A DNA stretch of 64,000 bases from Candidatus Nitrososphaera gargensis Ga9.2 (GTDB taxonomy: Archaea > Thermoproteota > Nitrososphaeria > Nitrososphaerales > Nitrososphaeraceae). The stretch is from contig NC_018719.1 of assembly GCF_000303155.1 (NCBI RefSeq), forward strand, positions 1,302,001-1,366,000. Reading direction: 5' to 3'. Of this stretch, positions 22,529-36,377 are shown piece by piece. The notes beneath the pieces were generated by a model. It saw only the letters and a program-made list of their open reading frames with translations. It had not been told where the DNA came from and searched no databases. The stretch's first letter is position 1. Each line of letters starts with the position of its first letter. Position numbers and translations under genes: made by a program.

Positions 22529-22960
22529 TTGAAAATAGATGAGATGGACTTAAGGCTCTTGAACCTCTTGCAAAAAGACAGCTCTGTCCCGCTTGTGAGA
22601 ATGGCAAGCAGCCTGCGCGTGACAGAGGGAACGGTCAGGAACAGGATAAAGAGGCTCCGCAGGACCGGCGTGATAAGGAAATTCACAATCTCTGTTGACT
22701 CGACGGCCATAGGCCAGAATGTAGTAGCGTTCATACTCCTCAATGCTGCGCCGGGCAGGCTGGCCGATGTTGCAAAAAGGCTCTCAACGATCGACGCAAT
22801 ATCTGAGGTGTACGAGACTCATACCTACAGTGACATGCTCCTCAAGGTGAGGGCAAAGAACTCAAGCGACCTCGCTGATATTATCGCAAACAGGATCAAA
22901 ACAGTAGGCGGGGTCGTAGGCACTCAAGTGATAACTGTGCTCAATGCATGGAAAGAATGA
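22529..22960 (+). CDS. Lrp/AsnC family transcriptional regulator; its 3' end is the integration site
   Basis: 143 residues from TTG at 22529. N-terminal wHTH (DLRLLNLLQKDSSVPLVRMA, VTEGTVRNRIKRLRRTGVIR) and a C-terminal RAM ligand domain (YETHTYSDMLLKVRAKNSSD). Possibly regulates the divergent hom gene. The last codons (AAT GCA TGG AAA GAA TGA) contain the attachment core shared with 36364-36377, so the stop TGA comes from the integrated element; the original end at the right boundary reads TAA. The protein is unchanged by integration. Confidence 0.93.
   Translation: MKIDEMDLRLLNLLQKDSSVPLVRMASSLRVTEGTVRNRIKRLRRTGVIRKFTISVDSTAIGQNVVAFILLNAAPGRLADVAKRLSTIDAISEVYETHTYSDMLLKVRAKNSSDLADIIANRIKTVGGVVGTQVITVLNAWKE
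22945..22958. other. Left attachment site core (attL)
   Basis: TGCATGGAAAGAAT, identical to 36364-36377; part of the last codons of the Lrp gene. Confidence 0.85.
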
Positions 22961-25813: not shown

Positions 25814-26043
25814 GTCCTTTGAAGTCGGTTCTTCTGGTTAATCGCACGCTTTTTCTTGATAATGATCCTAGATGCAACTATCTGTTACCTCTCACAAATG
25901 GCATAACGGTCAACGAATTTGCCTCGGAAATCATGAGAGCATGCGCAAATTACGATAAGTCCGTTACTTGGGAAGGTGCAAAATTTCTGGCTCGTGAACT
26001 TCTCGAGAGTGATACAAAAGGAGTTGAAATGCCTTGGGTATGA
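25810..26043 (+). CDS. Hypothetical protein (77 aa) upstream of helicase
   Basis: TTG start overlapping the preceding stop (ACTTGAG). Contains a hydrophobic start (LKSVLLVNRTLFLDND) and a helical end (EFASEIMRACANYDKSVTWE). The ATGA at 26040-26043 couples it to the MCM-like gene. It may be a helicase partner, but no family is recognised. Confidence 0.5.
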   Translation: MSPLKSVLLVNRTLFLDNDPRCNYLLPLTNGITVNEFASEIMRACANYDKSVTWEGAKFLARELLESDTKGVEMPWV

Positions 26044-27989
26044 CTGGAAAAGAGGCCAGACTGCCAGATTCCATGATACCAGAAGATGCGAGAGCCGTCA
26101 AGTCGCTTGACAACTTGCTCGATATCGAGACACCTGGTTTATCTGGTCAAGAGGTACAGGTTCCGGCAACCATTGCCAGCAACAGCATCTCATATACCAT
26201 ACCTGTTATAATGAAGGTAAAATGCTTGAACCATGATGACAAACACACATGCGAGAAGGAAGCCTCATTTGCTGTAGATCTAAAGGATTATCCAAAATTC
26301 ACTGAAGTGTCTGATTTTGTGAGAGAGCGCATCCTGATCAACCTCTTCAAAAATTCAGAAAACACCGGCTTTAATCATAAATGCAGTCTTGTAGTGAAGG
26401 ACCCTCAAACAACCACCATAAAGCGAATCCGAGCTAGGCCAGTAGTCAAGAATCTTCTCAGCAAAGATGGCAAGTTTTACGATAGCATGGGCCGCGAATG
26501 GAAATCAATAGACATTTTCGTACTGCAAAACGGACTGGCTACTCAACCCGGCAAACACATCGAGCTTACAGGGCTTGTCCTGCCTGATCCACGTTCTTCA
26601 AGAATCACCATGATGGCGCGGCATGTCAATGAGGCACAAGAGGCATCAGCTGACATCGAAGAGATGAACCGACTTGCCAAATTATTTGAGAATTGGACAG
26701 TCGAGCAAAGAATGGATTGGATCATCAAAAATGTTGCCACCTATGCAAAAGTTGTGAAGCGTGAGAATGTTATCCACGGTGCCTTGCTTTGCTTTTTCTC
26801 GCCTCTATACCTGAATTTCAACGGGGAAAAGATCAAGGGATGGATGAAGATAGTAATCATTGGCGATTCTACGGCTGGCAAGTCAAAGACTGTGAGAACT
26901 GTAATTAACGAACTGTTCGGTCTTGGGCAGATCATAAGCGGTGAAATGGCTTCGATGGCCGGACTTGCCGCCGCCAACATGCAGGCGTCATCTGGACAAT
27001 GGATGATAGAATACGGTCCCTTTGTTCTCATGGATGCAAAACTTCTCGCTGTCGATGGTGCTCACAAGGTAAGCGCTAGCGACTGGGCTGCTATTGGTGA
27101 AGCTGAAAGAGATGGTATACTAAGAGTTACAAAAGCAGGCAAGGCCGAAGCGAATGCAAGAACTCGCTTAATACTGATCTACAATCCTGTAACTGAAGAT
27201 AGGCGTTTCACAAGAGCAATGGACACCTTCCGGCGGGGAGCTCAAGCGATTGAGACGGTGATGGATGCGACAAGCATAGCAAGAACTGATCTAGCCATAT
27301 TTGTGAATGCTTCAGATGTTACGCCTGAAGATATCCACATTGTCCATAAAGGAACTACGGATCCAGAGCTACAATGCTTAACATCGCTATGCAGACACGT
27401 ATGGACAGGAAAGTACGAGACAATTTTTGAAGATAAAGCCCTTGAGAAGATACTATCTGAAGCAACACGGATTCAAAAGAAGTATTACCTCACTAGGATC
27501 CCTCTTGCCAGCCCAGATATTGACAAGAAATTAGCCAGACTATCTGCATCACTCGCCGCGCTCACCTGTAGCTTTTCATCCGATTGGTCAACACTGACAG
27601 TCAAGCAAGAACATGTGGATTATGTTGTAAACCTCCTAGAAAGTGAATACGAGAATGCTGGACTTGGCTCATTGGCGATGGATGACAGGCAAGAAGTGAC
27701 ACCTGATGAAGCAGCTACCCTTATTCAAAATATGCAGACAGCGCTCGGACAAAAGGCCCTAGATGATAAGGTAATTCATGAGATGATTAACTGGATTTCC
27801 GGAAAGGAAAAGTTCACTCGTGAAGATATGATGCACAAATTCCGGCTATCAGACAAAGAACAACTGCGACCTTTGGTTCACCAAATGAAGGAAGATGGAC
27901 TCTTAAAACAAGGCAATCGGGGATTCACGGCAACATTGAAGCTCACCAAACTTTCGAAGGTAATAGGTGACAAGAACAATGCTTCATAG
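26040..27989 (+). CDS. MCM-like replicative helicase of the element
   Basis: ATG at 26040 overlaps the upstream stop (ATGA) and gives 649 residues; TTG at 26034 is possible. The N-terminal half has an OB-like region with Cys/His (CLNHDDKHTCEKE). The AAA+ core has Walker A GDSTAGKSKT (about 275-284), sensor 1 LIYNP and the Arg-finger-like SIARTDLAIFV. The Walker B position reads LLAVDGAHK, where cellular MCM has a DE pair. The C-terminus has a winged helix (EKFTREDMMHKFRLSDKEQL). It probably unwinds the element's origin. Loss of the catalytic Glu is notable. Confidence 0.88.
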   Translation: MTGKEARLPDSMIPEDARAVKSLDNLLDIETPGLSGQEVQVPATIASNSISYTIPVIMKVKCLNHDDKHTCEKEASFAVDLKDYPKFTEVSDFVRERILINLFKNSENTGFNHKCSLVVKDPQTTTIKRIRARPVVKNLLSKDGKFYDSMGREWKSIDIFVLQNGLATQPGKHIELTGLVLPDPRSSRITMMARHVNEAQEASADIEEMNRLAKLFENWTVEQRMDWIIKNVATYAKVVKRENVIHGALLCFFSPLYLNFNGEKIKGWMKIVIIGDSTAGKSKTVRTVINELFGLGQIISGEMASMAGLAAANMQASSGQWMIEYGPFVLMDAKLLAVDGAHKVSASDWAAIGEAERDGILRVTKAGKAEANARTRLILIYNPVTEDRRFTRAMDTFRRGAQAIETVMDATSIARTDLAIFVNASDVTPEDIHIVHKGTTDPELQCLTSLCRHVWTGKYETIFEDKALEKILSEATRIQKKYYLTRIPLASPDIDKKLARLSASLAALTCSFSSDWSTLTVKQEHVDYVVNLLESEYENAGLGSLAMDDRQEVTPDEAATLIQNMQTALGQKALDDKVIHEMINWISGKEKFTREDMMHKFRLSDKEQLRPLVHQMKEDGLLKQGNRGFTATLKLTKLSKVIGDKNNAS

Positions 27990-34373: not shown

Positions 34374-34547
34374 ATGGGCACCAAAAAGCATAGAATGACA
34401 GTAGGGTTTGACAAGGGCGACATTGACTTTTTGCAGGAGCTTGGGATCTTTAAATCGACCGGCGATGGCATCAGGTTTGCTGTCAAGCTTATGCGGCTGT
34501 ATTCTATACCCACGCTCAAGGCCATAAAAGAAAAGGAGTTGTCATAA
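34374..34547 (+). CDS. Small ribbon-helix-helix-like protein (57 aa)
   Basis: MGTKKHRMTVGFDKGDIDFL, then QELGIFKSTGDGIRFAVKLM and RLYSIPTLKAIKEKELS. One strand (RMTVGF) and two helices separated by a Gly-containing turn fit a CopG/RHH fold. Could be a transcriptional repressor of the element. Confidence 0.55.
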   Translation: MGTKKHRMTVGFDKGDIDFLQELGIFKSTGDGIRFAVKLMRLYSIPTLKAIKEKELS

Positions 34548-34669: not shown

Positions 34670-35425
34670 GTGAATGACAATTTTACCAAGGAGAAAGTAT
34701 TAAAGGTGATAATCCCAAGGGATGGAGTGATGGGGACCGCCGACGGAGCGCAGGGTCTTGTGCTCACTGTCGAAGAGCTTCTGGGTCGACCTTTAAACGA
34801 TATTGAAAAGAAATACGCTCCCAAAATCCTTTACGTCAAAGGATCAATGCGAATTCCTTTACCAAGACCCAGAGTGTCGATAGTGGGTTCTAGGAAGGCA
34901 TCCGAAGAGGGACTTCATGCGGCCAACAGAATCGCGAGCACCCTAGTAAAAGATGGAGTTGTGATTGTCAGCGGTCTTGCAGAAGGAATCGATACTTCTG
35001 CCCACCAAGCAGCCCTAGAATCGCATGGACGAACGATCGCAGTTATTGGCACGCCGCTGAACAAGGTCTTTCCTGCAAAGAATTATCAGCTTCAACAAGA
35101 AATTATGAATAACCATCTAGTCATTTCACAATTTCCCATCGGGCATCCAACACGTCCGAAGGATTTTGTTCTAAGAAATCGGACTATGGCACTGATTTCT
35201 GACGCCACAATTATTGTGGAAGCTGGTGAGTTTAGCGGCTCTTTACATCAGGGTTGGGAAGCACTCAGGCTTGGCCGCTCATTGTTCATTTGGAAATCTA
35301 TATTGGAAAATAAAAAACTCACTTGGCCGAGGAAGATGATGCAGTATGGCGCGATGGAGCTTTCCAATCCAGAAGATGTCCTTGAAGTTTTGCCATCAGA
35401 TTTACAGATGCCTTTATTCCAGTAA
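34670..35425 (+). CDS. DprA/Smf-like Rossmann-fold protein
   Basis: 251 residues from GTG at 34670. The DprA/SMF core is clear: VSIVGSRKASEEGLHAANRI, VIVSGLAEGIDTSAHQAALE, GRTIAVIGTPLNKVFPAKNY, VLRNRTMALISDATIIVEAG. No SAM or winged-helix extension. In bacteria DprA loads RecA on incoming DNA; archaea do not normally use it. It is followed after 5 bases by a phosphoribosyltransferase gene. DprA-like plus PRTase pairings occur in bacterial PsyrTA/RqlHI-type systems, so this may be a toxin-antitoxin or defence module. Confidence 0.9.
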   Translation: MNDNFTKEKVLKVIIPRDGVMGTADGAQGLVLTVEELLGRPLNDIEKKYAPKILYVKGSMRIPLPRPRVSIVGSRKASEEGLHAANRIASTLVKDGVVIVSGLAEGIDTSAHQAALESHGRTIAVIGTPLNKVFPAKNYQLQQEIMNNHLVISQFPIGHPTRPKDFVLRNRTMALISDATIIVEAGEFSGSLHQGWEALRLGRSLFIWKSILENKKLTWPRKMMQYGAMELSNPEDVLEVLPSDLQMPLFQ

Positions 35426-35430
35426 CTATA

Positions 35431-36075
35431 ATGCGCATCACTAAAATTGAATTCGGTTCATACCTGACATATTCGCCAAAGTGCGATTCAGATGCAGCTA
35501 AAGCATCAAGAAACGCCATGAGAGCGTTAAAGGACGACGAAGTTCTTCCAAACTCTCAAATTCTGACATCTGAATTCATTGCGAATCTGATCAGAGATAA
35601 TCTCAATAGCTTGCCCTTTTCAAATTTCTTTAAAGCCAAGCCTATTCTAGTTCCCACTCCGCGCAGCTCCCTAATTCGACCAGGCACTCTCTGGGTTCCA
35701 CAACGACTAGCCAATGCACTTGCGCAAAGAGGACTAGGAAAGAATGTTGAGCCTTGTCTTAACCGCTTCAAGGCTGTAAGGAAATCTGCAACAAGTCAAG
35801 GAGACAGGCCAAAGGCATTCGAACATTACAATTCGATGGAAGTGCAAAAAATCTTTCCTGAACCCTCAGAAATTCTTTTGATAGATGATATTGTAACGCG
35901 AGGTGCCACCCTCTTGGGCGCAGCTAACAAATTGGCAGATGCCTTTCCTAGAGCGCACATTCGTGTATTTGCTGCGATGCGAACGATAAGCCCACCGGAT
36001 GTTTTTAGATCACTGTTTGATCCGTGCGTAGGTAATATCGAGTTGAGAGGCATCGATACATTTCGACGACCCTAG
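35431..36075 (+). CDS. ComF-like phosphoribosyltransferase
   Basis: 214 residues with a type I PRTase fold. The PRPP-binding loop is EILLIDDIVTRGATLLGAAN (about 149-168). Upstream are PILVPTPRSSLIRPG and a flexible-loop region rich in Arg/Lys. No N-terminal zinc finger as in ComF. It forms an operon with the DprA-like gene, and its 3' end overlaps the convergent AbrB-like gene by 4 bases. Substrate base unknown. Confidence 0.88.
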   Translation: MRITKIEFGSYLTYSPKCDSDAAKASRNAMRALKDDEVLPNSQILTSEFIANLIRDNLNSLPFSNFFKAKPILVPTPRSSLIRPGTLWVPQRLANALAQRGLGKNVEPCLNRFKAVRKSATSQGDRPKAFEHYNSMEVQKIFPEPSEILLIDDIVTRGATLLGAANKLADAFPRAHIRVFAAMRTISPPDVFRSLFDPCVGNIELRGIDTFRRP

Positions 36076-36266
36076 CTGTCGACCCTTCTAATCTCAATGA
36101 CGGGTTTCTCGTTCCTCTTAACATATTCAAATTCTACAAGCTCTCCGCCCTTGAGCTCCCATTGCTTTACGATTCTGACAGGAATGGTCACAAATAAGCT
36201 TGAGGGATGGTCCTGCCGCTTTCTTACTATGGATCTTGGGTGCTTGGCAAACTTTATCTTGCTCAT
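36072..36266 (-). CDS. AbrB/SpoVT-like protein at the right end of the element
   Basis: ATG at 36266 (MSKIKFAKHPRSIVRKRQDH) gives 64 residues; the frame is open back to 36323. The core is SLFVTIPVRIVKQWELKGGE then LVEFEYVKRNEKPVIEIRR, an AbrB swapped hairpin. It converges on the PRTase gene and is the last gene before the right attachment site. Fourth AbrB-like gene in the element. Confidence 0.7.
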   Translation of the reverse strand: MSKIKFAKHPRSIVRKRQDHPSSLFVTIPVRIVKQWELKGGELVEFEYVKRNEKPVIEIRRVDS

Positions 36267-36363
36267 ATGTGTACCAAAATTGCTTTTTGGAGTCCATAAC
36301 AGGGACTTTTGACCTCTTTTCACTTGAAAATTGCCTCATAAGGATAGTTTAACATACGCATAC

Positions 36364-36377
36364 TGCATGGAAAGAAT
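36364..36377. other. Right attachment site core (attR)
   Basis: TGCATGGAAAGAAT, identical to 22945-22958. Followed by AATAG, which restores an Lrp end with stop TAA, so the sequence to the right is the original downstream flank of the Lrp gene. Confidence 0.85.

What the first reader, a model, noticed from the sequence alone, without database searches (positions are those of the whole stretch)
34670..36075. DprA-like plus phosphoribosyltransferase gene pair as a possible archaeal defence or toxin-antitoxin module
Two genes 5 bases apart: a clean DprA/Smf Rossmann protein and a ComF-like PRTase with a full PRPP loop. Archaea rarely have DprA. In bacteria, PsyrTA/RqlHI-type systems combine a DprA-like protein with a PRTase domain (there fused to a RecQ-like helicase). 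Here the helicase is missing and the pair sits as cargo at the end of a mobile element, next to an AbrB-like gene.
Basis: partly seen in the sequence, partly recalled or inferred. Interest (0 to 1): 0.8.

Follow-up and report, generated by a model that had tools for sequence, protein, structure and literature searches.

The report
Compact archaeal ShosTA toxin-antitoxin pair
Two adjacent genes riding at the tip of a 13-kb mobile element in an ammonia-oxidising archaeon look like a stripped-down version of ShosTA, a known bacterial virus-defence pair in which one protein poisons the cell and a DprA-like partner holds it in check; similar pairs occur across several groups of archaea.

Summary
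ORFs at 34670-35425 (DprA/SLOG) and 35431-36075 (PRTase with a full PRPP loop) are 5 bases apart, at the right end of a 13.4-kb integrated element. I fixed the element's ends: a 14-bp att repeat found only twice in the genome, with the empty site present in relatives.

The PsyrTA/RqlHI analogy is close but not the best match. The helicase-free pair is already known as ShosTA. Both proteins hit PADLOC's ShosA (1e-77) and ShosT (8e-21). The AlphaFold model of the PRTase finds solved E. coli ShosT among its top three PDB matches, after ComF.

The archaeal pair is a compact variant: the PRTase lacks the HAD part of the tested E. coli ShosT, and the DprA lacks the N-terminal domain.

It is not a one-off. 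At 62 loci the PRTase is always paired with a DprA. Archaeal copies form a clade across Nitrososphaeria, Bathyarchaeia and Thermoplasmata. 22 of 398 sampled species of the phylum have the PRTase, 21 of them with a DprA. The PRTase is broken far more often than the DprA (13 loci to 2), as expected of a toxin. Toxicity and defence are untested for this variant. Novelty is moderate.

The parts
34670..35425 (+). ShosA-like DprA (SLOG Rossmann) protein, predicted antitoxin; start more likely ATG at 34730 (231 aa) than GTG 34670 (251 aa)
   Evidence: PF02481 2.5e-53; PADLOC ShosA 1.2e-77; AF2 pLDDT about 97-98 over residues 30-240, residues 1-24 disordered; homologue starts
35431..36075 (+). ShosT-like compact class-I (ComF-type) phosphoribosyltransferase, 214 aa, predicted toxin; no HAD domain
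   Evidence: PADLOC ShosT 8.2e-21; AF2 pLDDT 95.3; Foldseek top PDB hits ComF 7p0h and ShosT 8zvc/8zvd
35872..35910 (+). PRPP-binding loop ILLIDDIVTRGAT; D152, D153, T156, G158 invariant in 40 homologues
   Evidence: read from the sequence; alignment
22945..22958 (+). left attachment repeat TGCATGGAAAGAAT, 3' end of the AsnC/Lrp gene
36364..36377 (+). right attachment repeat TGCATGGAAAGAAT; end of the integrated element
   Evidence: sequence right of it continues the empty site seen in a relative (L043)
22529..22960 (+). AsnC/Lrp-family regulator, the integration target; its last codons overlap the left att copy
   Evidence: adjacent to the TauE gene in relatives without the element; AsnC gene AFU58629 listed as an integration target in PMC6563490
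23012..24226 (+). tyrosine recombinase (integrase) of the element
   Evidence: PF00589 1.6e-6
26034..27989 (+). MCM-like replicative helicase of the element
   Evidence: PF00493 7.5e-18
36072..36323 (-). AbrB/MazE-like swapped-hairpin protein at the element's right end; judged not part of the module
   Evidence: PF04014 9e-5, below the cut-off; no homologue in other loci

Best explanation
The pair is a compact, archaeal ShosTA-type toxin-antitoxin module carried as cargo by an integrated mobile element. ShosT (35431-36075) is a ComF-type class-I phosphoribosyltransferase that binds PRPP; when free it is expected to disturb the PRPP/purine nucleotide pool and stop or kill the cell. ShosA (DprA fold, encoded just before it and probably on the same transcript) is expected to bind DNA and keep ShosT harmless until infection or DNA stress shifts the balance, giving abortive defence for the cell and the element. 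SHOWN here: fold, intact PRPP loop, constant pairing, gene order, a deep archaeal clade, co-evolution, preferential decay of ShosT, exact placement inside the element. TAKEN from published work on E. coli ShosTA: toxicity through purine disturbance, DNA-binding antitoxin, phage defence. INFERRED: that the compact archaeal version does the same.
For: PADLOC ShosA/ShosT hits far above PsyrTA. Positive control: the E. coli P2-family pair that matches the solved ShosT and ShosA sequences scores on the same models. Foldseek of the ShosT model: ComF first, ShosT with PRPP-Mg second. ShosA model: DprA and E. coli ShosA. All 62 loci with a confident ShosT (a few near-identical) have a ShosA next to it on the same strand, 61 in the order A then T, mostly within 30 bases or overlapping. 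Independent sample: 22 of 398 genomes have ShosT, and 21 of those 22 are among the only 36 with any DprA. Trees: an archaeal clade (SH-aLRT 99 for ShosT) across Nitrososphaerota, Bathyarchaeota and Thermoplasmatota; distances of A and T correlate, r=0.71, 0 of 2000 permutations. ShosT is frameshifted or stopped with ShosA intact at 13 loci, the reverse at 2 (p=0.002), although loci were found mostly through ShosT. No recurring third gene. Context: one copy abuts a complete type I restriction operon; others sit on plasmids near integrases or transposases. Literature: DprA+PRTase protects against T7 and lambda (PMC9122126); ShosT PRTase/pyrophosphatase disturbs purines, ShosA binds DNA (review PMC12593503 on Pu et al. 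2025).
Against: No toxicity or defence test of any compact archaeal pair is known to me. Outside the PRPP loop, the compact ShosT profile does not align by sequence with the tested E. coli ShosT (hhalign probability 5%, 28 columns); the link rests on a PADLOC model that bridges both, on structure and on the DprA partner. TM-scores of the ShosT match are modest (0.45-0.48). The compact ShosT lacks the HAD part. Some DprAs of the compact type occur without a ShosT (L141, L142, L162). Part of the frameshifts may be assembly errors in metagenome-assembled genomes.
Confidence: 0.75

Rival explanations
1. Addiction module of the element: the same toxin-antitoxin chemistry, but its benefit is keeping the integrated element (and bacterial plasmids) from being lost rather than fighting viruses. 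Not exclusive of the best explanation.
For: Sits at the tip of an integrated element; relatives on plasmids near rep and par genes, integrases and transposons; patchy distribution.
Against: Many archaeal copies have no obvious mobile-element gene among the types searched (an incomplete search). The E. coli relative is a validated phage-defence system (PMC9122126).
Confidence: 0.3
2. A DNA-uptake or recombination helper like bacterial DprA plus ComF: DprA loads recombinase on single strands for the element, with the PRTase as an accessory.
For: DprA and ComF are competence proteins; the ShosT fold is closest to ComF; ComF-type PRTase and DprA are fused in some Thermoproteota.
Against: No ComEC (PF03772) in the genome. 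Patchy, mobile distribution. Preferential breakage of the PRTase. Strong ShosA/ShosT profile hits.
Confidence: 0.1
3. Nucleotide-salvage enzyme with a SLOG partner, moved around as a metabolic cargo.
For: Class-I PRTase fold; SLOG proteins bind nucleotides (LOG and Moco-carrier matches).
Against: Constant pairing with DprA, no recurring neighbour genes, only weak matches to APRT and OPRT families.
Confidence: 0.05

Closest known systems
ShosTA (shosT/shosA), e.g. E. coli P2-family prophage pair (424 + 349 aa; solved as 8zva-8zvd, 9vzo, 9w2p/9w2q)
   Same: DprA then PRTase, adjacent on one strand; PADLOC ShosA and ShosT profiles match both; solved ShosT is the second-best PDB match of our model
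   Different: E. coli ShosT has an N-terminal HAD-like domain, whose motif I reads FSIADVV rather than DxD; the archaeal ShosT is a bare 214-aa ComF-type PRTase and the archaeal ShosA lacks the N-terminal domain
Compact DprA+PRTase pairs on bacterial plasmids (Allochromatium, Sulfitobacter, Paracoccus, Chryseobacterium)
   Same: Same sizes, order and overlap; 30-35% identical PRTase, 46-55% identical DprA
   Different: Bacterial hosts; branch outside the archaeal clade
PsyrTA / RqlHI
   Same: DprA-like antitoxin of a PRTase toxin; in RqlH the toxicity maps to the PRTase domain and its PRPP-site aspartate (PMC4670107)
   Different: PRTase fused to a RecQ-like helicase there; no helicase here; PsyrA/PsyrT profile scores far lower
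ComFC (ComF) and canonical DprA of natural transformation
   Same: Folds: H. pylori ComF is the top PDB match of ShosT, S. pneumoniae DprA of ShosA
   Different: Scores below the NCBIfam cut-offs for both; no ComEC in the genome

Membership tests
ShosTA | DprA/SLOG protein matching ShosA | tested here: met
   PDLC03961 1.2e-77 over residues 41-242
ShosTA | PRTase matching ShosT | tested here: met
   PDLC03962 8.2e-21; structure match to 8zvc/8zvd
ShosTA | Two genes adjacent, same strand | tested here: met
   5-base gap; adjacent at all 62 loci
ShosTA | Intact PRPP-binding loop | tested here: met
   ILLIDDIVTRGAT; D152, D153, T156, G158 invariant
ShosTA | Domain architecture of the experimentally tested E. 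coli form (HAD-like part in ShosT, N-terminal domain in ShosA); a feature of that form, not required by the PADLOC models | tested here: not met
   E. coli ShosT hits HAD families and PRTase; ours is 214 aa with PRTase only; ShosA matches profile positions 90-294 of 303 only
ShosTA | Toxicity of T, neutralisation by A, virus resistance | not testable with these tools
   needs expression and infection assays; indirect: T decays more often than A
PsyrTA/RqlHI | RecQ-like helicase fused to the PRTase | tested here: not met
   214-aa protein, PRTase only
Competence ComF/DprA | Presence of the uptake channel ComEC | tested here: not met
   PF03772 absent from the genome, found in 10 of 14 control genomes

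The most novel reading that the evidence does not exclude
Archaea hold an old, minimal ShosTA lineage in which a bare ComF-type PRTase is the whole toxin. Together with the ComF-DprA fusion proteins seen in other Thermoproteota, this would mean that the competence pair (ComFC/DprA) and the defence pairs (ShosTA, PsyrTA) descend from one PRTase-DprA module, with HAD and RecQ parts added later.
Probability: 0.25. Interest if true: 0.6.

Novelty: new variant of a known kind. Interest (0 to 1): 0.4.

Why it matters
It extends a recently characterised phage-defence toxin-antitoxin system to a wide set of archaea, including ammonia oxidisers, whose defences are poorly known, and on a mobile element with exact ends. 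The compact form suggests which parts are dispensable (the HAD part of ShosT, the N-terminal domain of ShosA). That makes it a simple system for finding what the PRTase does with PRPP and how a DprA restrains it. The ComF-DprA fusions offer a route to ask whether competence and defence uses of these folds share an origin.

Tried and rejected
PsyrTA/RqlHI membership: rejected (no helicase, lower scores). Competence: rejected as the main reading (no ComEC). AbrB-like gene as a third component: rejected (no homologue at other loci). A second DprA in the host genome (1091568, 24.8 bits): not an intact gene; the stretch has a stop inside. A conserved larger operon: none; neighbours differ locus by locus. 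Programmed frameshift in ShosT: rejected, break positions differ between loci. Direct sequence search for ShosT in phage records: no match; by single sequence in PDB: nothing meaningful, found only by fold. Millman 2022, Kimelman 2012 and Pu 2025, which I recalled or found cited as the primary ShosTA papers, are not in the library; their content is cited through other papers.

Full report
WHAT IS THERE. The window lies in a complete 2,833,868-bp archaeal genome; the size, the relatives and the AsnC integration target agree with Candidatus Nitrososphaera gargensis as treated in PMC6563490 (the name is my inference). ORF1, 34670-35425 (+), is a DprA/SLOG protein (PF02481, 2.5e-53). ORF2, 35431-36075 (+), is a 214-aa class-I phosphoribosyltransferase whose PRPP loop reads ILLIDDIVTRGAT. 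They are 5 bases apart. The likely start of ORF1 is ATG 34730: many homologues start at the same place and the extra residues are disordered in the model.

THE ELEMENT. In four relatives (L037, L038, L039, L043) the run homoserine dehydrogenase - AsnC/Lrp - TauE is uninterrupted; in two more (L041, L042) dehydrogenase and TauE are neighbours with no Lrp gene detected; one (L040) shows only the TauE side. In the window 13.4 kb lie between Lrp and TauE. A 14-bp repeat, TGCATGGAAAGAAT, occurs at 22945-22958 (end of the Lrp gene) and 36364-36377, and nowhere else in the genome. L043 shows the unoccupied sequence running straight from this motif into the right flank. The element carries a tyrosine recombinase and an MCM-like helicase. 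Krupovic et al. 2019 (PMC6563490) name an AsnC-family gene as an integration target and an MCM-encoding cryptic element NitGar-E6; that this is that element is likely but was not checked by coordinates. GC of element and pair is 0.45-0.46 against 0.49-0.50 in the flanks.

FAMILY. PADLOC models: ShosA 1.2e-77 for ORF1 and ShosT 8.2e-21 for ORF2; PsyrA 2.6e-27 and PsyrT 3e-3 are much weaker. Positive control: the P2-family E. coli pair (L112) hits the same models, and its proteins match the solved ShosT along the whole length and the solved ShosA. AlphaFold with 36 homologues gives pLDDT 95.3 for ShosT and 90.5 overall for ShosA, about 97-98 in the folded part. Foldseek: ShosT model to H. pylori ComF (1.3e-4), then ShosT with PRPP-Mg 8zvc (1.7e-4) and 8zvd; ShosA model to S. 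pneumoniae DprA and, at rank 14, E. coli ShosA 8zva.

HOW IT DIFFERS. The E. coli ShosT (424 aa) has an N-terminal HAD-like part (PF00702, weak) before the PRTase. Its first HAD motif reads FSIADVV, lacking the usual first aspartate, so it may be catalytically dead (my reading of the sequence). The compact archaeal and plasmid ShosT has no such part, and the compact ShosA lacks the N-terminal domain. Apart from the PRPP loop, sequence alignment between compact and E. coli ShosT fails, so the relationship rests on the bridging PADLOC profile, the fold and the partner.

DISTRIBUTION AND PAIRING. Scans for ShosT in genome contigs, viral contigs and plasmids, and for ShosA in relatives, gave 62 loci with a confident ShosT, a few of them near-identical. 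Every one has a ShosA next to it on the same strand, 61 in the order A-T. One further ShosT (L082) runs off its contig. In an even sample of 398 genomes of the phylum, 22 have ShosT and 36 any DprA; 21 of the 22 are among the 36. Of the archaeal DprAs without a compact ShosT, several have another, more divergent PRTase beside them or fused to them; a few compact ones are alone (L141, L142, L162). Trees of A and T place 23-24 archaeal copies (Nitrososphaerota, Bathyarchaeota, Thermoplasmatota) in one clade, while the Aenigmatarchaeota and Nanoarchaeota copies fall outside it near bacteria. A and T distances correlate (r=0.71; 0 of 2000 permutations). This is an established archaeal lineage, with some exchange with bacteria.

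WHICH GENE IS COSTLY. Where one gene is broken by a frameshift or stop and the other is whole, ShosT is the broken one at 13 loci and ShosA at 2. With equal chance per base p=0.002. The loci were collected mostly through ShosT, which works against this result. Assembly errors should hit both genes alike, but remain a caveat, and the loci are not fully independent. The pattern fits a toxin whose loss is tolerated while the antitoxin stays.

MECHANISM. Shown for relatives: a DprA+PRTase pair of a P2-like phage protects E. coli against T7 and lambda (PMC9122126). In RqlHI the PRTase domain is the genotoxic part and its PRPP-site aspartate is needed (PMC4670107). For ShosTA, a review of Pu et al. 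2025 reports PRTase and pyrophosphatase activity of ShosT, disturbed purine metabolism, DNA-binding ShosA and T7 Gp0.7 as a trigger (PMC12593503; the original is not held). Inferred for this pair: ShosT consumes or misuses PRPP, ShosA restrains it, and infection or DNA stress releases it. The catalytic loop is intact and invariant.

CONTEXT. No third gene recurs. One Bathyarchaeota copy (L061) sits beside a complete type I restriction-modification operon, another (L088) near a type II methyltransferase, and DarT/DarG hits occur among neighbours. No background rate was measured, so this is suggestive only. Bacterial copies sit on plasmids with integrases, resolvases and transposases.

VERDICT. 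A real, intact, mobile two-gene module; a compact archaeal variant of the known ShosTA system. ShosTA has been reported in archaea before (PMC11291487), so presence in archaea is not the news. The compact architecture, the archaeal clade, the placement in a precisely bounded element and the ComF-DprA fusions are the parts that go beyond what I found written.

Noticed in passing
L166:1393-3249, L167:1-1488, L168:654-2309, L169:1677-3335: Single proteins of about 500-620 aa in other Thermoproteota that fuse a ComF-type PRTase (one with the RGFNQ motif and a Zn-finger) to a DprA domain: a direct physical link between the two activities.
   Followed up: partly
L056:4246-6143: A viral contig carries the pair in reverse order (403-aa PRTase protein first, DprA second).
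   Followed up: no
G059: L018, L019, L021: One genome holds three copies: one whole pair, one with a frameshifted PRTase, one DprA with no PRTase, a possible decay series.
   Followed up: partly
window 34374-34547: Small ORF (57 aa) just upstream of the pair, MGTKKHRMTVGFDKGDIDFLQELGI..., looks like a small DNA-binding regulator of ribbon-helix-helix type (by eye only).
   Followed up: no
L037:10913-11767 (G015:C1 about 1538909): In another species of the genus a different tyrosine recombinase sits on the other side of homoserine dehydrogenase, so this neighbourhood may be a repeated integration spot.
   Followed up: no
L022:2852-3844 (G005): A longer DprA (330 aa, ShosA profile 5e-52) with no compact ShosT found on its 9.3-kb contig.
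   Followed up: partly
L061:8681-15350: Complete type I restriction-modification operon directly beside a Bathyarchaeota ShosTA pair.
   Followed up: yes
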